Positions 9,024-39,826 of a DNA stretch of 39,849 nucleotides are shown here, in pieces. Every line of letters begins with the position of its first letter. Position 1 is the first letter of the stretch. The stretch comes from a virus: the IMG/VR virus record IMGVR_UViG_3300028025_003418, positions 1 through 39,849 of that record. The stretch is one strand, 5' to 3'. Under the pieces are notes generated by a model. That model had not been told where the DNA came from and made no database searches. It worked only from the letters and a program-made list of their open reading frames with translations. A program made the position numbers and the translations under genes.

Positions 9024-9076
9024 ATATTTCACTTTTCCGCTTGCATCGTAATACCATTTGCATTTCCTCTGACTCT

Positions 9077-9577
9077 ATGAAGCACCTATACGCACTTCTC
9101 GCTCTTTGTTCTTTTACTCACGCTAAGAACGAGCCTATCATCACGGAGAAGTTCTTGGACTCTGTCGCTATGATTGAGTCGAACTTCAATCCTAATGCTG
9201 TAGGTGACAAGGGCAAGGCTCTAGGGGCTTATCAGTTACATCAAGATGCTTGGATTGATGCCTGCAAGTGGATGGAGTATAATGACCGAGGTGCTTTTAC
9301 TGACAACTATTCTTGGCTGATTGGTAACATTACCGACCAATGGAAGACACGAGCAAAAGACCCTGTCATTTCACGCCAAGTTGCAAAGGCTTATTTCCTG
9401 CTCCTCTATTATCGCTTCCAAAAGCGTGGCATTAATCCTACCGAAATCCAACTCTATATGGCTTACAATATGGGATTTGGTGGTGCGGCTAAATACAACT
9501 TTGTGTACAATAACTACACCCTTCCAGACGCTCGTGCCTGCATCCTTAAGCGAGCCAACTTTATTCTCTCCAAATGA
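9077..9577 (+). CDS. secreted lysozyme-like transglycosylase, probable endolysin, 166 aa
   Basis: The start MKHLYALLALCSFTHA at 9077 begins with a clear signal peptide (cleavage after about residue 16). The mature part has the lytic transglycosylase pattern: catalytic E34 in MIESNFNPNAVG, GAYQ at 50-53 and YMAYNMGFGG at 127-136. It should cleave the glycan strands of peptidoglycan in the periplasm. A signal peptide would allow export by the Sec system without the holin. It is placed between the helicase loader and a ribbon-helix-helix gene, far from the holin and spanin genes. It could instead be exported early to assist entry or exclude other phages, but endolysin is the simpler reading. Confidence 0.8.
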   Translation: MKHLYALLALCSFTHAKNEPIITEKFLDSVAMIESNFNPNAVGDKGKALGAYQLHQDAWIDACKWMEYNDRGAFTDNYSWLIGNITDQWKTRAKDPVISRQVAKAYFLLLYYRFQKRGINPTEIQLYMAYNMGFGGAAKYNFVYNNYTLPDARACILKRANFILSK

Positions 9578-14962: not shown

Positions 14963-15268
14963 TTATTTTGTTTCTTTAACGAACTTACCTTTGAGCCATT
15001 CAAAGATGTCTGGTGCTAATGCTCCAGATGAAGCATAGATGATTCCTTTGTACAGTTGGTCTATGTTCGTAGGGTTAACTGCAAAGTAAACAAGCGTCCC
15101 AACGATAGCACCAGCGATGCCTTTTCTAATCCAGATGATAGCCTTGAACCTCTCTTCTGTGATTATAAGCCTAGCGATAGCACCAAGCCCTCCAAGGACA
15201 GCCACTATCCAGCCACCCTTCTTGAACTCTTGGGCTGTATCTATTAGGCTAGGGTCTATGGGACTCAT
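14963..15268 (-). CDS. holin-like membrane protein, 101 aa
   Basis: Three hydrophobic segments are visible: GGWIVAVLGGLGAIARLII (about 18-36), IAGAIVGTLVYFAV (about 51-65) and GIIYASSGALAPDIF (about 75-89), with charged loops and a basic C-terminus. Length and pattern fit small phage holins such as the LydA/phage holin type. It would make pores in the inner membrane to time lysis. It overlaps the giant gene by ATGA and is followed by the spanin-like gene with no gap (TAAATG). Confidence 0.7.
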   Translation of the reverse strand: MSPIDPSLIDTAQEFKKGGWIVAVLGGLGAIARLIITEERFKAIIWIRKGIAGAIVGTLVYFAVNPTNIDQLYKGIIYASSGALAPDIFEWLKGKFVKETK

Positions 15269-18200
15269 TTCTTTGGCTCTTCTCTTTGTACTCTACGCTT
15301 GGCTTGGTCGAGGTCTAGGTAGATACCGAGCATCGCCTTCTGAGGGTTGTATACCTTGTACTTATCGCCTTGGACAATAATCATCCAGCCGACAGCATTC
15401 TTCCAGAAGCCTCCGTTAAGACCTTTCTCAAGAGTCCAACCTCTCCAGCCTTCCAGTTTGCCAATAGGACTTACAGGAGGAGGTGTGCTTCTGAACGGAG
15501 TTGCGTATCCTCCTCCAAGGTCTGGAGGCATTGTGGAACTAGGGAACACAGGGGCAGGAGGAGGCGTAGGGGCAGGAGGCTTGACTCTAGGTCTAGGAAT
15601 TTCAGCCGCATCCAGTTGCTCTCCTTCAGTGAGGTCACGCTGGAGGAATTGTTCTCTGTCCATATTAGCACCCTCCTCCATATCGCTTCTATTGTTAGCC
15701 CTGTCTTGGATAGCCTGCTCGCTTTCAATGGCAGTGCCTTCAGCCATATCTCTTCTGTGCGTTGCTTGGCTCTGTGAGCGAACCTTCTTGATTCCTTCTG
15801 CCTCAACATCCGCACCTTCATCTAGGGTACGCTGGTTCTCAGCACGAGTGGCTTGAATTTGCTCAGCCTCAATGTCAGCCCCTTCAGCCATATCTCTCTG
15901 GCTCTCTGCTCTTGCAGATTGAGACTGTCTAGCCTCAACATCCGCACCCTCAGCCATATCAGCCTCATAAGCCTTCTTAGCGTTCTTGGAAATACGCTGA
16001 GAGTTCTTCTCGATGTTCTTGTCAAGAGGTTTGAGTATCTTTTGTAGTCCCTTAAGTGTTTCGACTGGAGTAAGAGAAGGACGAGCAATGCCTTCTTCAA
16101 CAGCAGACACAATTTTATCGTAAGAGGCTCTGAGTTCTGGGACTAGGACTTCATCGGTAGCGTCTTGCTTTCTTACGGCAAGTCTCAGTTCCTCAACAGC
16201 AGTTTTAATCGTAGGAGACAAGTTGGCAGTATCAGACAGTTTGTCCACCATATCTGCAACCTGCTTCACTCCAGTCTTAACGCTATCGCTTACCTTGTAA
16301 TTGCCTTCAAATGGCTTGATAGGAGGTGTGGTTTCTTTTTGTTTCTCAGCAAGCATAGGTTTAAGCGTGTACTCAACTAGGCTGTAATGCTCTGATTTCG
16401 CATCCCAGTATCTACGCTTTTGGTCACTGTAACCTTTGCCTCCTTTTTTAAATCTTTCGTTTTTGTCAATAATTGATTGCAACATATCAACCCTTTCTTG
16501 AACTCGTGCAATGTCTGCATCAGAGACTTTGTATCTAGCCTCTGGGTTCAATCTAGACACAGTAACTTTACCGCTTTCAGAAATGTTAGAAAAAGACTCT
16601 GGGTCTAGTTCAGCATTACCAAACGCAGAGCGTCTAGCCTTGGTGGGTCTGTCAAGTTTATCAACAACCTCTCCGTACACTTCCTTAACTCCTTGGCTTC
16701 TGACACGCTCACCAAACTCAGACAGCATAAGTTTGCTGTATCCCCTGTTTCCAAATTGCTCAGGAACTTGAGTGTCAACGATTTTAGCAGTGCCATCACT
16801 GTATATAGTAGCGTTAAGAATACCAACTTGTTGACCACTGTCATTGTGCAAGGCAACAGTGATAAGGTTTTGTCCCTTAATTAATCTTTTGTTTTCAATG
16901 TAGTTGATTTCAATTCCAGCAAACTTTTCTGGGTTTTGTTCAGCAATTCGACCAACAAAGCCACGCTTCCATTGTTCGCTACCAGTGTCATAGGTTCTAC
17001 CACCATCAAGAGGCTCACCTGCAATATCAGAAACCTTGAACTTAGGTTCACCAGCAAGAGTTTTTTCCTTTGTGGTAGCCTTGTTAAGCGTATCCTTACG
17101 CATCTCGTGACTGCTTTCACGAACAACACCTTCTCCGAATGTAGAGGTTGTGTTCATCAGCAGTTCAGATGTAGACCTAAATTTACCGCTTTTAGAGAGG
17201 TAGTGGGTGCTGACATCCTTTCCGTGAGGAGGATTAATCATATCAGTGATTCTTCTGGGGACTTTGAATACCGACATAACGGCAGGAGTGGTCTTGCCAC
17301 CACCAGCATCGCTTCTGTAGTCCATAGGGAAGCCTTCGTGACCACCAGTCTCTGTTACCATCGTTTGCTTTTGTGGAACTTCAAGAGCCGCAACAATCTT
17401 TCCGTATCCAAGTGACTCTCCATCTGCACCTCTTGTAATCGGCTCATCTGTAAGTTTTAGGATTTCTCTAGCAAAGTCCTTTCCAGTAATCTTCATTTCT
17501 GGGTTGTTGAAGAACTTCTGGAAATAATCCTTGTTCTTGATAACGCTAGGAAGGGTGGCAAGCGTCTGTACGAGCCTGTCCATCGTCTCTCCTCTGTTGT
17601 TAAATGTGGACTTATCTTGAGGGAAGAACTGCTTCTCTAGGAACGCAATCTGTTCAGCCGCAGATTTCCCAATCATAGGCTTCAGCAAGTCACCTTGAGG
17701 AACTCTGATTTGAGATGTAGTTCCATCTTTGTTCTTTACAGTCTTAGTGCTAAACGCCTCAGACATAGCCCTAATGAGGACATCAATTTCCTTAGGGTTG
17801 ATAGCCTTGCTTTGCACGAACTTAGCAAGAAGTGAAGTTACAGCACCACCAACTTGCGGGTGACTGAACGACTTTGTTTCGTTTCCAGAGATAAGCAGGA
17901 AGGTCAGTGGCTTTCCAGACTTGATAGCCTTCTGCCTAACAGACTCAATTCCCTTCAAGCCAGCGGAATTAACCGATGCAAGCACAGCCGATTGTTTGTC
18001 TGGATTAATCTCACCAGAAATAACATTATGCAAAGCACCACCTTGAATCTTGCTGATTACTTTTCCATTTGAACTATCAATAAGATTCCAAACTCCAGAG
18101 TTATCGTAATTAATTAGAACTACAGGTCTTCCTGCGAACTCTGACGAATCTACATCCTTGCGGAGTCTTCCAGAAAGTTCAGCACCTTCAAGGAATTTGT

Positions 18201-21200
18201 CAAAACCAGTTTCCCTAGCGACACCATCAGCAACCTTCCAAGAGATGCCAACTCCAGTTCCTACACGGACTCCTTCTCCACGAGGCATAGACTCTTGGAT
18301 GGGGTATCTGATAGAGCCTTGGTCGCTTTCAAGCATACCAGTTTCTTTCTCGGACTTTGTGAAGACCTTCTCCATACCAATGTGAGTGTCAATGATAGCC
18401 GTGTTGTCCTTAATTGAGTCTGCCATAACAATAAACACTGTGTCGGCATTTCCTCCGTCATAGACATTCTTGATGATTATGCCATCGTGTCCATCTGCTC
18501 TGGCTTTATCAAAAATCTTTTCGTACTTGTACTCAGCAAAGCATTCAAACTTGTAATCAAATACAAACGGATTGTTGAACTTGATGGCGGCTCTGACTTG
18601 GCGATATCCAGTATCTCCAGCCTTGGGGTCAGCGTAGCCAAATGAGGTCTTTGTTTCCCCAGCAAGGAACACACCAATCTTGTCCTTCTGGCTTCCGTGT
18701 CTTGTGCCTAGTTGCTTAGGGTCGAACTCCCTAGATGTCATCAACTCAGCAGAGTTCGTTCCGTGCGTAGCGACAGTAGTGACAGGCTTTCCAGTTTGGA
18801 ACTGGTTGTCGTATTGTTCACCAAAGAACACCTTAGCCATATTGTCATAGCCAACGCTGGTGCGTCTGTGCTTGTTGATGTAGTCTAGGATAGCCTGTCC
18901 GTTTCTATTGCCTCTTGCCGTTGCTCTTTCATAAGCAAGGATGACATCGTTGTATCTGTCAGCGTGAGCAACTACTGTTTCGTAGTCCATAGCGGCTGCT
19001 TTGTACTCAGCGTTCTTGAAGCCTTCACCTCTGGCTGTTGCTCTATCCTTTGCAATCTGAAGTCTATCGTAAGCCTTTGTTCTCAAATCTCTGAGAGCAT
19101 AGCCACGCTGAACGACTTGTTCTGTGACCTGCATAGCAGTCTCTGGGTCGGACTGACGAAGTTTGATGAAGTTGTCGCTGTAGAACTCTTCACGAGTTTG
19201 ACGGATAAGTTCAGTTCCGTGTGTAAACGCCTTGCCAGCATCTGTGGCAAAGATATCACCAAGCCTTCTCCCTTCAGCAAGCGTCTCATCATCCCACACC
19301 TTGAACGACATCTGCTGTTTGTCTTGGTATTCTTTGACTCGTTCAATACGCTTCTCTATCTCAACACGCTCAGACGCATAAGCCTTTTCCATAGCATTGC
19401 TGGCGAGTTCCTTGTTTTTGAATTCTCCCAAGGCGTTGCCGTTGCTGTCGTATAGTTTAGACGCACCATTAGCGTCAGAGGTAATCTTGTACCCAGAAGC
19501 GTGTGTAAAGATTGTGCCGTTAGTTGTTGTCTCGGCATCCATATCAGAAACCTTGAAGTTCTTGCTCAAGTCTCTATGTGCGTTGTCGAGGTTAAAGTCG
19601 TAACGGATGCTTGTGTTGCTCTTCATAGGACTCATTGTGTCCATAGTGAAGTTCGTAACAGTAGAGGTCTTGCCTCTAGGAATTTCTGCAATAGGTGTAT
19701 TGAAGTACGCTTCAGCCTTACGCTTAGCCATACCAAGGAACTGGTGCATCACATTTCTACGCTCTCCACCGAATCCGTCACCACGAGCAAGTGAAGGAAT
19801 CAAAGAAGATTCCAAACGAGTCTTGTCCGTGCTAGCCTTGCTTGCGTTGCTGAGGTAATCAAAGAATGATTTCTCGAACTCGGTTCTATCGCCCTGCCAC
19901 AAATCTCTGACTGTCTGGTCAGCCCACAGTTTGTTGCCACGCTCATCAATGACCTTCTTGTCCAGACCCTTCATAAGGAAGGACATAGTTCCGTCTTTCT
20001 TGACCTTGATTTCATAACCAACAACAATTGTTTCTCTGGCTGTAATCGGAACAGCCGCACCTCTGAGACGAGGAGAATTTGGACCAACTTGAGTCTCCAT
20101 AGACGCTCCCTTATAGAGATAGGAAACCACATTAGAACCTTTGCCAGCAACGATGTCTTGAACATCACGGATTCTGTCGGCAAGCAATTGGCTGATGTGA
20201 CCTTCCTTGACCAAGTGTGCAAGAACTGTATCGTTGAACCTAGTTCCAGTTGTGCTTGAAACATTGAAGTTGCCATCAAGGTCTTTTAGTCCGTTGATGA
20301 CAGCAGGGTCTAGTTTAGACAACGAGTCGTGGATAGCCTTGCCAGTGACAACACGCTCGGCTTCAATCTGTGCTTCAGTGATATTACGCAACTTGCCATC
20401 CTTATCATAGTACGCTTTGACACCATCCATACCATTGCTGTCAAAGAAGGCTGTACGAGCCTCTGGGCTTAGCGTTCTTACATCAAACGAATTGGTGCTA
20501 CCTTTGCGTTTACCAGCGACAGAACGCAGGAGGTCTTGAACCATATAATCAATGGCTGAACTTCTTTGTGCAAGTGTGCGATTTCCTTTATTTGGACCAA
20601 ATGATGCGTCAAAGCCTTTTGAAAAGTCACCAAAGGTAGGATTCTGTCTGGTGACTTGGCTTTGCCAGAAGTCCAAGAAGTTGTTATGAAGCCTGTCCAT
20701 AACCCCTTGCATACCTGTGTACTCTGCTCCACGGAACAGGTAGTCAACAGGCTTGCCTTTCATAAACTGAGTAGCGTAGTGAGCACCAAATTCTTCAACT
20801 AGGTTGTCGAGAACTCTAGCGGAGTCTGGATTCATCTTAGCCGTACTTCCAGCCTTCTGGTACTCGGCAAGGTGTGCATCAAATTCTGCCATTTTCTGTG
20901 CCATCACGGAAGGAGGCAAGTCCTTGAATTTCTTGCCAGTCGTAGGGTCTACAGTGTACTGGAACTCACGCTGAACGAACGCACGGAACTCCTTAGGGTC
21001 AATCTCTGAAGCCTTGACCTTGATGCCGTTAGAGTCGAACTTACCAAGGATAGCCTCAGCAAACCCATCACGGAACATTCGTTCCATAACTGTGGTCTTG
21101 AACACAGCGTGGAAAAGTTCGTGGTGCAACACATTCTTGCTGGTAGAGTCCGCATTGATAACAACAGTGACTTGCTTCTTGCCGTTGCCGTCCTTGTCGG

Positions 21201-22893
21201 TAACCATCGTGAATCCTTCCCCGCCATAGAAACCTTCCATAGGGGCTTCAAATTGAATTGGTTTTCCTTGAGCGTCTAAGACCTTCTTGCCAGTCTTTGG
21301 GTCAACTCTATGACCATCTGCGTCAAGACCTTTTGCCTTAAGTATAGCCTCTTGTCCCTTTGCTGTTTCTACGATAAGTCTCATATCTGGAGCAATTCGG
21401 TCAAGACCAGCAATGACCTGCAATGCACCAGCCCTATCTCCAGCAAGCGTTCCTCTTAGAAGAACTGCTTCAACAGCAGGAAGGTTTGGGTGATTGTCTG
21501 CCCTCATATTCTCAACGACAAACCCACCTTGTACCTCTGCTCTAGCCATCTTAGTTCCTCCAGAAATGTCAGCAAACATCCTTCCCGCAAGAGCACCAGT
21601 ACCACCAAGAGCCATACCAGCACCAATGCCGTGTCCTAAGCCCTCTTTGCCACCACTCAGATAACCAAGACCACCGCCAACAGCACTACCAACCGCAATG
21701 CCTTCAGCCATACCATAGCCATAAGACATCAAGGGGTCAACAGCATCAAGAACCTTAAGCAGTCCCTTGGCGTGAGGAGACAGATTTGGCGTTTGCTCAA
21801 GAGCCTCTCTAGCAAAAGAATTATAACCACGCTTGAAACCTTGCTTCTGGATTTGTTCTCCAACAGCACCAATTGCTTCACCAAAACCTCTAGCCGCACC
21901 TGCACCTATGTATACATTTGAAATAGTAGAGACTACAGGAATATGACCTCCAAGGACAGAGGCAGTACTTGTTCCAACAGCAGACATTCTTGCGGTTGCT
22001 TGGAACTCTTTAGCGGACATACCAGTAGTGGTTTCAAGTACATTGCCACCAACAGCAATAGCCTTGTCGATAACTCCTTTAGTTGTAGCACCAATCGCTT
22101 CAATAGGAACACCAATACCCCATTTAAGACCACCACCAATGACAGCGGATTTAAGAGCCTGTGCTCTTGCACCAAGCATCACCATTTTCTCACCCATACC
22201 AACGACACGCATACCAGCGGTAGCGGCTTGACCAAACGGAATAAACAAGGTAGGGTCAGCGATATAAGACATCGCCAGCGTTGTGTCGTGGTCAATGACA
22301 CGCTTGTCCATAATGATTGTTTCATCACCAGAAGCCAAAGCCGCAGAGTGCTTATTGAACTTACGAGCCTCTAGGAATTGTCTGTAACCCTCGTCACTTC
22401 CGTTACCAGAAATGGCATCTTTAAGACCGAACAAGACGCTGTCTGGGTTAGCCGACTGAGCAACCATACCATACAGGTTTCTAGTACCCTGTGCAAACGC
22501 CTCAATAAGCGATGTAGGAGCAGTAGCCAGAGCCTTCATTGGGTGGTCTGCAACAGCACCAACGGCTCGACTTAAATCTCCAAGGACTGTACCAGCACCT
22601 TCTGCAATCCCATCAAGCAAACTAGTTTCGTGAGTTTTGTTGTACGCCAAGTACTTAAGGTAATCTGGCTGAGTAGGAACATAATCCATATCACGCTTAA
22701 GAGCCTCAGCGATATCCTCGCCTGTAAGCGGAGCATTAATTCTTTCTATAGCCTTCTGGCGTTCTTCTGGCTCAAGAGAGTCAAGGTATGTCTGAGTCTG
22801 TTCAGAGAACACAGGAGCGTTTTCTGGAGACACTCCACCCCTATTGGCTACTTGCAATTCACTGTAAGAGCCTTGGTTCTGGAAGTTTTCCAT
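15265..22893 (-). CDS. giant polyvalent internal virion protein, 2542 aa
   Basis: Numbering here counts from an ATG at 22914; the likely start is residue 8 (MENFQNQ, 22893), one base after the preceding stop. Residues 100-460 are Ala/Gly-rich and amphipathic, fit to insert in membranes. A zinc-peptidase motif HELFH is at 598-602, with EEFGAHYATQF near 707. Residues 1384-1506 look like an ADP-ribosyltransferase domain of the polyvalent type (HGT, GVFLAG, SFGYAD, DGHDGII). Residues 1998-2110 look like a GNAT acetyltransferase (QFGNRGYSKLML). The motif [FY]KVSD occurs at 1120, 1959, 2128 and 2206. Six acidic repeats of about 22 residues (2319-2438), a Pro-rich stretch and a small C-terminal domain follow. 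Position after other internal virion genes suggests ejection into the host; functions are inferred from the domains. Confidence 0.8.
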   Translation of the reverse strand: MENFQNQGSYSELQVANRGGVSPENAPVFSEQTQTYLDSLEPEERQKAIERINAPLTGEDIAEALKRDMDYVPTQPDYLKYLAYNKTHETSLLDGIAEGAGTVLGDLSRAVGAVADHPMKALATAPTSLIEAFAQGTRNLYGMVAQSANPDSVLFGLKDAISGNGSDEGYRQFLEARKFNKHSAALASGDETIIMDKRVIDHDTTLAMSYIADPTLFIPFGQAATAGMRVVGMGEKMVMLGARAQALKSAVIGGGLKWGIGVPIEAIGATTKGVIDKAIAVGGNVLETTTGMSAKEFQATARMSAVGTSTASVLGGHIPVVSTISNVYIGAGAARGFGEAIGAVGEQIQKQGFKRGYNSFAREALEQTPNLSPHAKGLLKVLDAVDPLMSYGYGMAEGIAVGSAVGGGLGYLSGGKEGLGHGIGAGMALGGTGALAGRMFADISGGTKMARAEVQGGFVVENMRADNHPNLPAVEAVLLRGTLAGDRAGALQVIAGLDRIAPDMRLIVETAKGQEAILKAKGLDADGHRVDPKTGKKVLDAQGKPIQFEAPMEGFYGGEGFTMVTDKDGNGKKQVTVVINADSTSKNVLHHELFHAVFKTTVMERMFRDGFAEAILGKFDSNGIKVKASEIDPKEFRAFVQREFQYTVDPTTGKKFKDLPPSVMAQKMAEFDAHLAEYQKAGSTAKMNPDSARVLDNLVEEFGAHYATQFMKGKPVDYLFRGAEYTGMQGVMDRLHNNFLDFWQSQVTRQNPTFGDFSKGFDASFGPNKGNRTLAQRSSAIDYMVQDLLRSVAGKRKGSTNSFDVRTLSPEARTAFFDSNGMDGVKAYYDKDGKLRNITEAQIEAERVVTGKAIHDSLSKLDPAVINGLKDLDGNFNVSSTTGTRFNDTVLAHLVKEGHISQLLADRIRDVQDIVAGKGSNVVSYLYKGASMETQVGPNSPRLRGAAVPITARETIVVGYEIKVKKDGTMSFLMKGLDKKVIDERGNKLWADQTVRDLWQGDRTEFEKSFFDYLSNASKASTDKTRLESSLIPSLARGDGFGGERRNVMHQFLGMAKRKAEAYFNTPIAEIPRGKTSTVTNFTMDTMSPMKSNTSIRYDFNLDNAHRDLSKNFKVSDMDAETTTNGTIFTHASGYKITSDANGASKLYDSNGNALGEFKNKELASNAMEKAYASERVEIEKRIERVKEYQDKQQMSFKVWDDETLAEGRRLGDIFATDAGKAFTHGTELIRQTREEFYSDNFIKLRQSDPETAMQVTEQVVQRGYALRDLRTKAYDRLQIAKDRATARGEGFKNAEYKAAAMDYETVVAHADRYNDVILAYERATARGNRNGQAILDYINKHRRTSVGYDNMAKVFFGEQYDNQFQTGKPVTTVATHGTNSAELMTSREFDPKQLGTRHGSQKDKIGVFLAGETKTSFGYADPKAGDTGYRQVRAAIKFNNPFVFDYKFECFAEYKYEKIFDKARADGHDGIIIKNVYDGGNADTVFIVMADSIKDNTAIIDTHIGMEKVFTKSEKETGMLESDQGSIRYPIQESMPRGEGVRVGTGVGISWKVADGVARETGFDKFLEGAELSGRLRKDVDSSEFAGRPVVLINYDNSGVWNLIDSSNGKVISKIQGGALHNVISGEINPDKQSAVLASVNSAGLKGIESVRQKAIKSGKPLTFLLISGNETKSFSHPQVGGAVTSLLAKFVQSKAINPKEIDVLIRAMSEAFSTKTVKNKDGTTSQIRVPQGDLLKPMIGKSAAEQIAFLEKQFFPQDKSTFNNRGETMDRLVQTLATLPSVIKNKDYFQKFFNNPEMKITGKDFAREILKLTDEPITRGADGESLGYGKIVAALEVPQKQTMVTETGGHEGFPMDYRSDAGGGKTTPAVMSVFKVPRRITDMINPPHGKDVSTHYLSKSGKFRSTSELLMNTTSTFGEGVVRESSHEMRKDTLNKATTKEKTLAGEPKFKVSDIAGEPLDGGRTYDTGSEQWKRGFVGRIAEQNPEKFAGIEINYIENKRLIKGQNLITVALHNDSGQQVGILNATIYSDGTAKIVDTQVPEQFGNRGYSKLMLSEFGERVRSQGVKEVYGEVVDKLDRPTKARRSAFGNAELDPESFSNISESGKVTVSRLNPEARYKVSDADIARVQERVDMLQSIIDKNERFKKGGKGYSDQKRRYWDAKSEHYSLVEYTLKPMLAEKQKETTPPIKPFEGNYKVSDSVKTGVKQVADMVDKLSDTANLSPTIKTAVEELRLAVRKQDATDEVLVPELRASYDKIVSAVEEGIARPSLTPVETLKGLQKILKPLDKNIEKNSQRISKNAKKAYEADMAEGADVEARQSQSARAESQRDMAEGADIEAEQIQATRAENQRTLDEGADVEAEGIKKVRSQSQATHRRDMAEGTAIESEQAIQDRANNRSDMEEGANMDREQFLQRDLTEGEQLDAAEIPRPRVKPPAPTPPPAPVFPSSTMPPDLGGGYATPFRSTPPPVSPIGKLEGWRGWTLEKGLNGGFWKNAVGWMIIVQGDKYKVYNPQKAMLGIYLDLDQAKRRVQREEPKK
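15601..15960 (-). repeat. six 12-26-residue repeats DMAEGADxE in the giant protein
   Basis: Residues 2319-2438 contain six copies beginning DMAEGADVEA, DMAEGADIEA, TLDEGADVEA, DMAEGTAIES, DMEEGANMDR and DLTEGEQLDA, mostly 22 residues apart and shortening at the end. They are acidic and likely helical, and lead into a Pro-rich linker. Confidence 0.75.
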
Positions 22894-22894
22894 A

Positions 22895-25459
22895 TTATCG
22901 CTTGTTCGCTTCAATTCTTGCTTGTTGTTCCAGTCCCTTTACATCTCCAGCCGTAGGAGCAAATGTAACTTGAATACCAGCACTGTTATTCTTTAAGGAA
23001 TCTTGCATAGAGTTCATAATGCTGTTTAGTTTAGATTTGCCAACTGTGTCAAACTGAAAGAACTTTCTAGGGTCACCAATTCGTTCCAGAATCATTTGGT
23101 GTTCTGGCAAGGCAACTGGACCTGTTCCGACTGTTTCCACACGAATAGCCGCTTTAAGTTTAGCAAGCAAAGATTCAGCCTCGCCCCACATTTCGCTAGG
23201 AATAAGGGTTCTTTCTCCTTTGCCCTTTTCATACATAGCAAGAAGTTTAGGGATAATGATACGAGTTTGCACTGTGTCATCGTGGAGTTTCTTGAACTCC
23301 TTGGCACTTTCCTTGCCACCCTTGACAAATCCAGCGAGTTTAATGCCAGAACCCTTTGCTCGTTCTTCTGGGATAATGCGTGTTCCAGAAGCATCTGGAG
23401 TGCCGTAATTAAACAAAGTAACATCGCTTCTTTGCTCGTCAGTCATTTGTTTTCTTTCCGCAGGAGGAATGTATTGAGCACCCTTAGATGTAATCATAAC
23501 CTGTCCACCATCTGGTGCAGGCATAAACTTTACATCAGTCTCTGGACGGATGCTCTTGTACACAGCATCAAGAGATGAAGGTATAATGCCTTTATTGTTG
23601 TCCACAAACCACTGGCGAACTCTTTCCTTTTCTTCAGCATATGTCTCGTCACGAGTTCCTTGAACAACACCTTCTTGAATCTTTGTGTTGTAATTAAAAG
23701 GTTGAGCGTAAGTGTCAGCAGGCTTTTCTGGCTCATTTGCAGTTTCAACAGCCTTTACAGCCTTTTGTGCTTCAGTCGAAACATTCTTGAGCGTATCAAT
23801 TCTATCTTTAATAGACTTAATGCGTTCTGGAAGAGGAGCAGTAGGGAACTTTTTATCAAGGGCGTTTGCGATTGCAACCTTTGTCAAATCCTTTTGTGCA
23901 AGCGTTCTAGGGTCAAAAACTCCTAGTTCTCCTGCAATATCAAGAGCACCGCCGAATGCACCAAGCAATCCAGACTTAGAAACTCCTTTTGTAATCAAGG
24001 TAGATGGGTCAGCGGCTATTTCTGCTCTATTAGCAATACCAGCCTTAGCCAGTTCTAATACTTTCTGCAAGGATTCTTGTGCTGGACTTCCAGATTTTGT
24101 GAAATATGAAGTATCCTTTTTCTGTTCCTTCAACAAATCAGCAAGTTCAGACTCAAGTGTTTTTACTTGTGCATCAACACCTTCTTTTGTTTTTAGAATT
24201 TCAGATTTTGTTTCATCATCTGGGGATTTGAGCAATTCTTCAAGGTTTAACTCCGCACCAGCAAGTTGAGACTTAGCCACCTCAAAATTTTCTTGAAGAA
24301 AAGTTTTTGTTTCTTTAACTTCCTTGTCAAGTCTTACTGTGTCTCCAGACATTCTGGCATCTTCGATTTTTTCTAGTTTTGAATACAATTCTGGCCAAGA
24401 CTTTTTCTGACCTTCATTGAAAAAAGTAGTGGCAAGATTATAGGCAATAACCCTGTTGTCTGTTTCATTAAATATATCTAAAAGTTCAATCCTTTTGTTA
24501 TCAACTTTGATTCTTTCTTTTACGGCTTCAATTTCTTTTTCTCTCTTGCTCAGAGGTTTTTCTGTTTTGCCACCATCAGCCTTACGCTGTTCAGCAAGAG
24601 CCTCAGCCGCTTTCTGTTCCCTCATCACTGTGGCAGGGGCTACAGTAGCACCCTTCAACGATTCAGAAAGTTGAGCAACCTGTTCCATAGCGTTTTCGCC
24701 AGTTCCGTAATCTTCAGATGTTTGACTCTCAATTTCTCCAGCAACCTTCTTTACATTTCTCCAATCAGAAAGACCCTTCAAGATAGTGTCTCTGAACTTA
24801 GGGTCTGTCTTTGCAAGGTTAGGGTCATTAGCAAAACTATTTTCCCAAACTTTAGCGAGTTTATCAAGGGCACTTTCAATGTTGAACTTAGAAAGACCTT
24901 GAGCCTCTGCTTGAACTTCAAACGCCTTTCTATTAAGGGCAAAGTTTTCCTCTGTGGTTTTTGCAGGAAGATACGGAACTGCCTCAAGAGGCTTCCCGCT
25001 TTCTTCAGTAGGAATAGAAACCTTCTGTGACAATGCTGACTGAACACCCTGCTGGGTTCTTCCAACAAGACCTTCTTTGTAAATAGCAAGATTAGGGACA
25101 ATTTGATTCTGGAATGCTTTAGCCTCAACAAGAAATCCCGCTTGTTGATTCGTGGACATACTGTCAAACTTTGAAAACTTATCAAGCAAAGGCTGGAATC
25201 TATCTGCAAACTGAGCAAGTTCTGGGTTGTCCTTTATGTTCGTCTGCATAAACTTCAGATTTTCATAAAGACCAGCACCTTCAGCAGTAGTTACTTCTCT
25301 TTTGTCTTTGTTAGCATTGTAGGACTTTATCGCATCTCCAATGCCAGCACCAAGTTTCGTCAAACCCTCTTGGTACATCCTTCCGATGTTTGCCCCAGCC
25401 TCAACTACACCAGTGACAGGACGAACACCACCACCTTTATAATCAGAGAACATTGCCAT
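22895..25459 (-). CDS. internal virion protein, 854 aa
   Basis: The start MAMFSDYKGGGVRP at 25459 was chosen because it lies one base after the previous stop (TAATATG), like several late genes; an earlier in-frame ATG would overlap the previous gene. The first 40 residues are Gly-rich, followed by GANIGRMYQEGLTKLGAGIG. Most of the protein is predicted helix, with coiled coils around residues 295-450 (for example KREKEIEAVKERIKVDN) and an Ala/Lys-rich region near 560. Size, helical content and location between a 349-residue virion protein and the giant gene fit a T7 gp15-like ejected core protein. No catalytic motif was seen. Confidence 0.6.
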   Translation of the reverse strand: MAMFSDYKGGGVRPVTGVVEAGANIGRMYQEGLTKLGAGIGDAIKSYNANKDKREVTTAEGAGLYENLKFMQTNIKDNPELAQFADRFQPLLDKFSKFDSMSTNQQAGFLVEAKAFQNQIVPNLAIYKEGLVGRTQQGVQSALSQKVSIPTEESGKPLEAVPYLPAKTTEENFALNRKAFEVQAEAQGLSKFNIESALDKLAKVWENSFANDPNLAKTDPKFRDTILKGLSDWRNVKKVAGEIESQTSEDYGTGENAMEQVAQLSESLKGATVAPATVMREQKAAEALAEQRKADGGKTEKPLSKREKEIEAVKERIKVDNKRIELLDIFNETDNRVIAYNLATTFFNEGQKKSWPELYSKLEKIEDARMSGDTVRLDKEVKETKTFLQENFEVAKSQLAGAELNLEELLKSPDDETKSEILKTKEGVDAQVKTLESELADLLKEQKKDTSYFTKSGSPAQESLQKVLELAKAGIANRAEIAADPSTLITKGVSKSGLLGAFGGALDIAGELGVFDPRTLAQKDLTKVAIANALDKKFPTAPLPERIKSIKDRIDTLKNVSTEAQKAVKAVETANEPEKPADTYAQPFNYNTKIQEGVVQGTRDETYAEEKERVRQWFVDNNKGIIPSSLDAVYKSIRPETDVKFMPAPDGGQVMITSKGAQYIPPAERKQMTDEQRSDVTLFNYGTPDASGTRIIPEERAKGSGIKLAGFVKGGKESAKEFKKLHDDTVQTRIIIPKLLAMYEKGKGERTLIPSEMWGEAESLLAKLKAAIRVETVGTGPVALPEHQMILERIGDPRKFFQFDTVGKSKLNSIMNSMQDSLKNNSAGIQVTFAPTAGDVKGLEQQARIEANKR

Positions 25460-25460
25460 A

Positions 25461-26510
25461 TTAGGAAGAGAGAATAGAAACCTGCTTGATTTGCTTATCC
25501 ACAACGACATCCATCATTGCACGAATAACAGTCTTAAGCATAGGTTTGTTTGAAATGAACTCGGCAAATCTTTCGCCTTCTTCATTGTAAAGTTTATGAA
25601 GCCATCTTGGTGCTTCAGTGTCAAGCCATTCACGGAACATAGTCCATTTAGGATTATCATTGCCATAGACTTCACGAGCAACCCAGCATCCAGCAAAGTT
25701 TGTTCCAGAAGCACCTTGACCAACCATACCCATTGCACCAGACCAAAGCCCTGCTTTTGCTTGGGCAGTAGCCATTTTAGCAGACATTTCATTCTGTTGA
25801 TTGGCAGAAATAAGTTCAGCGTTGTACTGGTTTTCTGGGCTAAACAGTTTAGCACCAAGACCACCATACATCTGCTGGGCTTGTCCAATCATAGCAGGAG
25901 CAGATACAGCACCCATTTGATTCATCAGAGGCTGACCATACATAGACATAGCCTGTGCCGCATTTTGTTGACCAATACCATATACTTGTCCTGCGTATGC
26001 TTGAGCCTGCTGTTGACGCTGATTAGAAAGGTTATATGCATTAAGAACTTCACCAGCAATGGCTTGATTACCGAACTGCATACCTCTAGCCGCCATAGCC
26101 GCCCTAGCAGAGCCTTGAGCCATACGCTGTTGCTGTTCCGTCAGTTGACCGCCACTGGCAAGCCCTTCTTGAGCCTGCTGAGCCATTGTGCTGTACAGCC
26201 CTGCCGTAGTAGGGTCTAGCGTGGCGTTGTAGGCGTTTCGAGCGTAACCCCCGACCTGCCCATACAACTCACCCTGTGAAGCCAGCATCTGCCCTTGGAG
26301 AGCCTGCGATTGAGGGATGGCAGAGCCGTACAGATTGCCAAGAGTTCCCATTTGTCCTTGCAATGCTTGCTGTTGGAAGGCTTGCCATTGCGGGGTGTAT
26401 TGTTGTTCGGCTGAAAGAAGTTGTCCTTGAATGCCAGTCTGCCCAGAAAGGGCTGATTGCATTTCGGAAAGATATCCTCGTTTTTCTGGCGGTCTTACTG
26501 TTGTTCCCAT
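25461..26510 (-). CDS. Gln/Ala-rich internal virion protein, 349 aa
   Basis: Residues about 10-250 are very rich in Gln, Ala, Gly and Met with long helices (for example SGQTGIQGQLLSAEQQYTPQ), as in gp14-like internal core proteins that insert in the membrane during ejection. The C-terminal part (about 275-345) is a distinct domain with CWVAREVYGNDNPKW and FREWLDTEAPRW, a sequence type found at the C-terminus of many phage structural proteins. The gene is separated by only a few bases from the preceding and following genes and belongs to the internal virion block. Confidence 0.65.
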   Translation of the reverse strand: MGTTVRPPEKRGYLSEMQSALSGQTGIQGQLLSAEQQYTPQWQAFQQQALQGQMGTLGNLYGSAIPQSQALQGQMLASQGELYGQVGGYARNAYNATLDPTTAGLYSTMAQQAQEGLASGGQLTEQQQRMAQGSARAAMAARGMQFGNQAIAGEVLNAYNLSNQRQQQAQAYAGQVYGIGQQNAAQAMSMYGQPLMNQMGAVSAPAMIGQAQQMYGGLGAKLFSPENQYNAELISANQQNEMSAKMATAQAKAGLWSGAMGMVGQGASGTNFAGCWVAREVYGNDNPKWTMFREWLDTEAPRWLHKLYNEEGERFAEFISNKPMLKTVIRAMMDVVVDKQIKQVSILSS

Positions 26511-39543: not shown

Positions 39544-39617
39544 TAGGGGTAGGGGGAATCGAACCCACCGACTTAAGCCTTATAAAGACTCCACTCTAAC
39601 CACTGAGTTATACCCCC
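39544..39617 (-). tRNA. tRNA-Ile (anticodon UAU)
   Basis: The cloverleaf folds: acceptor GGGGGTA with TACCCCT (first pair G-T), D arm ACTC/GAGT, anticodon stem GAGTC/GGCTT with loop TTTATAA (anticodon TAT), T arm around GGGTTCGATT. One mismatch is found in the T stem. It has no encoded CCA. The anticodon reads AUA. Confidence 0.8.
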
Positions 39618-39657
39618 CTGTAAAGAATCCATTCGTAATTCCCGAATAGCGAATAAG

Positions 39658-39730
39658 TACGGCAAGCGGGGGTCGAACCCGCAACATCCTGCTTGGAAAG
39701 CAGACACTCTGCCAATTGAGTTATTGCCGC
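39658..39730 (-). tRNA. tRNA-Gly (anticodon UCC)
   Basis: The acceptor GCGGCAA pairs with TTGCCGT (first pair G-T). The D arm is ACTC/GAGT, the anticodon stem TCTGC/GCAGG has the loop TTTCCAA (anticodon TCC), and the T arm GCGGG/CCCGC has the loop TTCGACC. It reads GGA. No CCA is encoded. Confidence 0.88.
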
Positions 39731-39753
39731 CAAAGGCGTACTGCCGTGAAAGG

Positions 39754-39826
39754 TGGGACTGGCTGGACTTGAACCAGCAACAAACGGCTTAAAAGGCCGC
39801 TACTCTAACCATTGAGTTACAATCCC
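39754..39826 (-). tRNA. tRNA-Lys (anticodon UUU)
   Basis: The acceptor GGGATTG pairs with CAGTCCC, the D arm is ACTC/GAGT, the anticodon stem GCGGC/GCCGT has the loop CTTTTAA (anticodon TTT), and the T arm GCTGG/CCAGC has the loop TTCAAGT. It reads AAA. It is the first of the three tRNAs in the direction of transcription. Confidence 0.9.

What the first reader, a model, noticed from the sequence alone, without database searches (positions are those of the whole stretch)
15265..22893. Giant polyvalent protein with peptidase, ART-like and GNAT-like segments
A single 2,542-residue late gene joins an Ala/Gly-rich membrane-active region, an HELFH zinc-peptidase motif, an ADP-ribosyltransferase-like segment (HGT ... 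DGHDGII) and a GNAT-like segment (QFGNRGYSKLML). It follows other ejected virion proteins, so it could carry a set of host-modifying enzymes into the cell at infection. The combination in one virion protein is unusual and could be a new effector system.
Basis: partly seen in the sequence, partly recalled or inferred. Interest (0 to 1): 0.75.

Follow-up and report, generated by a model that had tools for sequence, protein, structure and literature searches.

The report
Phage effector polyprotein with matching module tags
An uncultured short-tailed phage makes a 2,542-residue protein, probably injected, that strings a protease, an ADP-ribosyltransferase and an acetyltransferase together; such 'polyvalent' proteins are known, but the joints here carry a short tag whose spelling is the same throughout each protein and differs between phage lineages, which looks like an unreported cleavage code.

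Summary
In detail: one 2,542-aa ORF on the minus strand (15265-22893) carries HELFH, an ART-like segment and a GNAT-like segment at the stated residues. The combination is not a new effector system. It fits the 'polyvalent protein' class of Iyer et al. 2017, where zincin, ART and GNAT domains, and ART next to GNAT, are already described. Family support: HExxH plus EEFGxxY invariant in 43-45 relatives; the ART model matches diphtheria-toxin and PARP catalytic domains; GNAT relatives match Pfam PF00583. The peptidase fold itself was not confirmed. Relatives occur only in uncultivated podoviruses (about 70 contigs); no cultured phage or cellular genome matched.

The new result is a boundary motif, [FY]-x-[PV]-[SA]-[ED]-(G), between modules. 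Letter x is uniform within a protein (FKVSD here; FQPSEG, FMPAEG, FSPAE, FKPAEG in relatives). The letter at the end of the conserved core predicts the letters at downstream joints (51/70 versus 15 expected; 41/62 versus 13 in an independent set). Homologous modules in proteins with different letters each carry their own protein's letter in 296 of 358 pairs, one at 88% module identity. I read these as cleavage sites that release the modules, most likely by the embedded zincin; cleavage itself is inferred.

The parts
15265..22893 (-). Giant polyvalent protein gene, 2,542 aa (ATG at 22893, stop at 15265-15267)
21304..22806 (-). Residues 30-530: conserved Gly/Ala-rich N-terminal region present in the family, ejection/membrane-type
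19558..21249 (-). Residues 549-1112: conserved core holding the zincin-type peptidase motif
21109..21123 (-). HELFH (591-595), invariant H-E-x-x-H in 43 of 43 sequences that cover it
20776..20796 (-). EEFGAHY (700-706), candidate third zinc ligand; E, E, F, G and Y invariant in 45 of 45
19543..19557 (-). Anchor boundary motif FKVSD (1113-1117), end of core
19291..19305 (-). Second boundary FKVWD (1197-1201), variant, about 80 aa after the anchor; similar motif at this spacing in many relatives
18358..18828 (-). ART domain, residues 1356-1512 (H1377, F1409, D1470, D1484)
18226..18240 (-). Variant boundary motif WKVAD (1552-1556), in a low-confidence linker
17026..17040 (-). Boundary motif FKVSD (1952-1956), in a low-confidence linker before GNAT
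16564..17007 (-). GNAT domain, residues 1963-2110
16519..16533 (-). Boundary motif YKVSD (2121-2125), directly after GNAT
16285..16299 (-). Boundary motif YKVSD (2199-2203)
15604..15966 (-). Degenerate DMAEGADxEA-type repeats (about 2310-2430), charged stalk
15268..15456 (-). Conserved C-terminal module (2480-2542), found at the end of most giants
22895..25510 (-). 871-aa gene just upstream, probable second ejection protein (T7 gp15 / N4 gp51 position)
25461..26510 (-). 349-aa Gln/Ala-rich gene, probable first ejection protein (T7 gp14 / N4 gp52 position)

Best explanation
The gene encodes a polyvalent ejection polyprotein of an uncultivated podovirus family. A conserved N-terminal half (Gly/Ala-rich ejection-type region plus a zincin-type peptidase core, residues 1-1112) is followed by exchangeable cassettes: a small domain, an ART, an unknown domain, a GNAT, a short module, and a charged stalk with a C-terminal domain. 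Each joint carries a short recognition sequence, [FY]-x-[PV]-[SA]-[ED], spelled FKVSD/YKVSD in this lineage. The joints are most likely cleaved, before or just after ejection into the host, by the peptidase in the same chain, so the enzymes are delivered as one chain through the tail and then separated. Shown by computation: anatomy, domain families, module shuffling, motif at module ends, lineage-specific self-consistent spelling, and re-spelling of shared modules. Inferred: ejection, cleavage, which peptidase cuts, and that the ART and GNAT modify host proteins.
For: Family and modules. Zincin residues invariant. ART fold and family. GNAT (63, 105, 106). Motif: 5 occurrences in 24.4 thousand residues upstream of the core end against 70 in 32.2 thousand downstream; the core-end letter predicts downstream letters in 51/70 (permuted 14.9 +/- 5.9, maximum 43 of 50,000) and, in 22 giants not used to define it, 41/62 (12.9 +/- 5.7, maximum 37). 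Letter states changed at least 9 times on a core tree built without the motif; well-supported branches alone force 3 changes each for K, S and M and 2 for Q (90). Homologous modules in proteins with different letters carry their own protein's letter in 296 of 358 pairs; the L133/L159 module is 88% identical with Q and M (109). Codons differ between copies, Ser TCT and AGC included, so selection acts on the peptide. Module homology ends lie within 10 aa of a motif in 23% of cases against 6.3 +/- 1.4% at random. A blind repeat finder recovers the motif in window, L125 and L130 but not in N4 or RPP1 vRNAP (98). Two window motifs lie in linkers with pLDDT below 50. No other recognisable protease in the window ORFs scanned. 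Precedent: phage ejected proteins cut at lineage-differing motifs SxE and AxE (95).
Against: No cleavage has been seen. N4 vRNAP, which also has an HExxH domain, is packaged uncut. The zincin fold gave no PDB match and hhalign to the N4 HExxH domain shares only the motif. Motif positions 1197 and 1552 are imperfect. Some proteins have one or two foreign-letter joints, or few motifs (L122, L126, L175). The homologous-module pairs are not independent of each other. A docking or packaging tag would show the same self-consistency.
Confidence: 0.5

Rival explanations
1. The boundary motifs are cleavage sites for a different protease, a host enzyme or an unrecognised phage maturation protease acting in trans, with cutting after the conserved Glu/Asp as in prohead-protease processing of giant-phage ejected proteins.
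For: The fifth motif position is acidic (required by the search pattern), and whether it is D or E follows the lineage (D in KVSD, E in xPSE). phiKZ and SPN3US proteases cut ejected proteins at SxE and AxE, which differ by lineage. Several structural ORFs of the window have no family match.
Against: No protease other than the embedded zincin was recognised in the scanned window ORFs. The KV[SADN][DE] spelling is absent from the other ten structural ORFs, including capsid and portal, which prohead proteases usually cut.
Confidence: 0.17
2. The motifs are docking or packaging tags: each module's linker binds the core of the same protein or a partner ejection protein, to compact the chain in the head or order its passage through the tail. 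No cleavage occurs.
For: Self-consistency and re-spelling only need recognition, not cutting. N4 vRNAP stays whole.
Against: The motif sits at module ends, where a cleavage site is most useful; an invariant peptidase motif in the same chain has no other obvious job.
Confidence: 0.18
3. An ordinary polyvalent protein in which the motif is only a linker relic spread by recombination between modules, with no function of its own.
For: Modules are shuffled and copied within and between giants.
Against: Synonymous codons differ between copies; modules up to 88% identical carry different letters matching their own protein; anchor letter and downstream letters changed together in several lineages.
Confidence: 0.08
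4. A new effector system unlike anything known.
For: No relative in 50,697 phage records or in the cellular genome scan.
Against: Same domain set and logic described in 2017; BFVD relatives already carry polyvalent-protein names.
Confidence: 0.04

Closest known systems
Polyvalent proteins of phages (Iyer et al. 2017, J Bacteriol, PMC5512222)
   Same: Very large late-gene product; zincin-type HExxH, ART and GNAT in one chain; ART and GNAT neighbours; predicted injection; zincin proposed to process the chain.
   Different: That paper, in the parts read here, names no sequence mark at domain joints; here a lineage-specific motif marks them. The window protein itself falls below the Pfam cut-offs for these domains.
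N4 virion RNA polymerase gp50 (Schitoviridae), with gp51 and gp52
   Same: Last of three ejection-type genes in the same order; giant size; N-terminal membrane-associated region; an HExxH domain.
   Different: No RNA polymerase domain detected here; the HExxH regions share only the motif; N4 has no repeated boundary motif and is packaged uncut.
Roseovarius Plymouth podovirus 1 vRNAP, prototype polyvalent ART
   Same: Its ART aligns with this ART over 106 columns, E 1.8e-4, matching HGT and the DG(I/A) turn.
   Different: Otherwise N4-like; no boundary motif found.
phiKZ gp175 / SPN3US gp245 processing of ejected head proteins
   Same: Ejected proteins cut at short acidic motifs that differ between lineages (SxE, AxE; PMC5694885).
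   Different: A separate serine-type prohead protease acting in trans; the sites mainly remove propeptides rather than separate enzyme modules.
T7 gp14-gp15-gp16 ejectosome
   Same: Three-gene order and size rank (from my own knowledge).
   Different: No lytic transglycosylase domain detected in this giant; the SLT domain is a separate gene at 9041-9577.

Membership tests
Polyvalent proteins (Iyer 2017) | Several domains of unrelated activity in one polypeptide | tested here: met
   ART fold by Foldseek, GNAT by Pfam in relatives, zincin motif
Polyvalent proteins (Iyer 2017) | Zincin-like MPTase: HExxH helix plus Glu in a later helix | tested here: inconclusive
   Residues invariant and on predicted helices 41-52 and 141-163 of the core model; no PDB fold match
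Polyvalent proteins (Iyer 2017) | Late or structural gene context | tested here: met
   Same strand as capsid, portal-position and terminase genes, between ejection-type genes and a holin-like gene
Polyvalent proteins (Iyer 2017) | Packaged in the virion and injected | not testable with these tools
   Needs virion proteomics; gene order only
Polyvalent-type ART (Tox-ART-HYD2, PF18760) | ART fold | tested here: met
   Top 50 PDB hits of the model are diphtheria toxin (and a homolog) and PARP catalytic domains; best E 6.5e-4
Polyvalent-type ART (Tox-ART-HYD2, PF18760) | H (strand 1), Y (strand 2), D (strand 5) | tested here: inconclusive
   H1377 100%, D1470 and D1484 97% each; the presumed strand-2 position F1409 is F in 70% and Y in 8% of domains
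Polyvalent-type ART (Tox-ART-HYD2, PF18760) | Scores above the Pfam cut-off | tested here: not met
   Window ART no hit; relatives L152 54.3 bits and L153 63.6 bits pass the 31.2 cut-off
GNAT superfamily | Acetyl-CoA motif R/Q-x-x-G-x-G/A and Pfam score | tested here: inconclusive
   Family consensus RGKGY; window copy reads GNRGYS. Window domain E 4.3e-4 to PF14542, below cut-off; 22 of 39 family domains hit PF00583, best E 1.3e-7
N4-like virion RNA polymerase | T7-like RNA polymerase module | tested here: not met
   No such Pfam or PHROG hit up to E 1 and 0.1
Phage prohead-protease substrates | Separate prohead protease encoded near the capsid gene | tested here: not met
   No protease family among the 20 window ORFs scanned with Pfam; half of the structural ORFs have no match at all

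The most novel reading that the evidence does not exclude
These viruses use a lineage-specific cleavage code: the peptidase carried in the injected chain recognises a short joint sequence, and imported effector cassettes are rapidly re-spelled to the recipient's code. This would be a bacteriophage analogue of a self-processing polyprotein for injected effectors.
Probability: 0.42. Interest if true: 0.8.

Novelty: new variant of a known kind. Interest (0 to 1): 0.62.

Why it matters
In 2017 zincins were proposed to cut polyvalent proteins into working parts, but the text read here names no sites for it. A short, lineage-specific joint sequence gives exact predicted sites, fragment sizes (about 120, 9.5, 40, 43.5, 18.7, 9.2 and 37.5 kDa for this protein) and a natural cross-specificity experiment. 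It also gives a sequence handle to cut long unknown phage proteins into modules, and suggests that module exchange is followed by adaptation of the joints.

Tried and rejected
tblastn of the whole protein and of four divergent cores against 50,697 phage records: nothing. PDB sequence search: nothing. Core scan of the cellular genome collection: 246 pattern hits, none related. hhalign to the N4 HExxH domain: only the motif aligned. PDB fold search of the core: no match below E 1. A first combined ART+GNAT alignment (A4) was mis-aligned and was not used. Phage C75C1 was taken as the nearest cultured capsid match (30.9% identity); no repeated boundary motif of this kind was seen in its large proteins. 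Universal-motif idea rejected: N4 and RPP1 vRNAP, L118 and L209 show no such repeat. DNA-level repeat as the cause rejected by codon differences. Searches for an earlier report of a joint motif found none in the library held; subscription papers and supplements were not searchable.

Full report
OBSERVATION. The reported ORF exists, on the minus strand: open frame 15265-22914, ATG at 22893, 2,542 aa. The three named segments are at the stated residues. HELFH is at 591-595. The protein alone matches almost nothing: one weak GNAT hit in Pfam (E 0.0095), none in PHROGs (7), the PDB by sequence (10) or cultured phage records (8).

RELATIVES. A protein scan gave one IMG/VR relative, L001, 72% identical in its best segment and with a large insert around the GNAT. 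The capsid protein (SU10 type) is shared by at least 254 IMG/VR stretches, and searching 48 of those and related records for the giant gave 30 with a match. A core-alignment scan then gave 71 loci. No relative was found in cellular genomes or cultured phages. Complete giants run from about 2,280 to over 3,300 aa. Residues 30-1175 are conserved throughout; after that, modules vary in identity, number and order. ART domains were found in 30 of 43 representatives and GNAT domains in 26, one to three per protein.

DOMAINS. Peptidase: H591, E592 and H595 are invariant in 43 of 43 sequences that cover them, and E700, E701, F702, G703 and Y706 in 45 of 45. An AlphaFold2 model (pLDDT 78.5) puts HExxH and EEFG on two helices. 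Foldseek against PDB finds nothing convincing; against viral models it finds uncultured-phage proteins already labelled 'Large polyvalent protein associated domain', 'ART-PolyVal-like' and 'NAT_SF' (best E 1.7e-35). I therefore call it zincin-type by motif, fold unproven. ART: the model of 1176-1956 (overall pLDDT only 59, ART blocks about 50-87) returns only ARTs in the top 50, diphtheria toxin catalytic domain first (E 6.5e-4) and tankyrases next. Relatives match PF18760, and the prototype polyvalent ART of RPP1 aligns (E 1.8e-4). H and D positions are conserved; the presumed strand-2 tyrosine is mostly phenylalanine. GNAT: 22 of 39 family domains match PF00583.

CONTEXT. The giant follows a 349-aa and an 871-aa gene on the same strand, the order seen for N4 gp52-gp51-gp50 and, from general knowledge, T7 14-15-16. 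A holin-like gene follows it. This supports, but does not show, ejection.

BOUNDARY MOTIF. Reading the protein, FKVSD/YKVSD recurs at 1113, 1952, 2121 and 2199, with variants at 1197 and 1552. In relatives the aligned position at the core end reads NFQPSE, NFMPDE, NFSPAE, NYKPSE, NWSPRE and so on, and the same spelling returns at that protein's other joints. A blind repeat search finds it as the top repeat in window, L125 and L130, and as a leading repeat in the most divergent core, L206 (NFSLSN, NFSLTN, RYSISN), though there not above the shuffled count; it is absent from N4, RPP1, L118 and L209. Overall form: [NRK]-[FY]-x-P-[AS]-E-G.

TESTS OF THE MOTIF. Position: 5 motifs upstream of the core end in 24,424 residues against 70 in 32,211 downstream; shuffled expectation downstream 19.5. 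Module ends: 23% of inter-clade homology ends within 10 aa of a motif, random 6.3 +/- 1.4%. Self-consistency: letter x at the core end predicts downstream letters in 51 of 70 (permuted 14.9, maximum 43 of 50,000); with one protein per clade 31 of 41 (permuted 7.8, maximum 30). In 22 giants not used to define the motif, 41 of 62 (permuted 12.9, maximum 37). Tree: at least 9 changes of the letter on a core tree built without the motif. Re-spelling: of 358 homologous-module pairs between proteins with different letters, both carry their own letter in 296. The strongest single case is L133 KGRYQPTEGDRTY against L159 QGRYMPTESEQGG, modules 88% identical. Several mismatched joints involve modules closely similar to one in a lineage that uses that letter (L159 YQPSELEVL, 75% identical to L154), as expected after recent transfer. 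Codons of the copies differ. The window's spelling is absent from the other structural ORFs. The pairs are not independent, so 83% is a description, not a p-value.

MECHANISM. A recognition element spelled per protein, placed at module ends in linkers and re-adapted after module exchange, is what a cleavage site for a co-inherited protease would look like. The chain carries an invariant peptidase motif, and I found no other protease in the scanned ORFs. Iyer et al. proposed such processing on general grounds. Lineage-differing cleavage motifs are established for ejected proteins of phiKZ-like phages. Against it, N4's giant is packaged whole and docking tags would show the same statistics. I put self-cleavage at about 0.42 to 0.5, another protease at 0.17, docking at 0.18.

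NOVELTY. The joint motif with lineage-specific spelling was not found in the literature held and makes this a new variant.

Noticed in passing
window 39544-39826 (-): Three tRNA genes (Ile-TAT, Gly-TCC, Lys-TTT) at the right end beside the terminase side.
   Followed up: no
L117 and L118 (88,287-base contig): One contig carries two giants: a 2,586-aa close relative and a 3,511-aa remote one (21% identity) without the boundary motif.
   Followed up: partly
L113 residues about 1,970-2,520 (same protein as in L001): The nearest relative has roughly 550 extra residues before its GNAT, with a GDVVVH..VLFIEEIQSQ stretch that resembles, from memory, another polyvalent-protein domain.
   Followed up: no
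window residues 1560-1950 (17044-18216, -): A domain between ART and GNAT with no family match; it is shared with L113 but some other close relatives align poorly here and may carry a different domain.
   Followed up: no
window 9041-9577 (+): Separate transglycosylase (SLT) gene in the early or replication half, not fused to the ejection protein as in T7 gp16.
   Followed up: no
L140 (phage C75C1), CDS 38751-7576: Large protein with its own repeated joint-like sequence of the form TYxxPxFxV, unrelated to this family.
   Followed up: no
window 15604-15966 (-): Degenerate DMAEGADxEA repeats whose number differs between close relatives.
   Followed up: no
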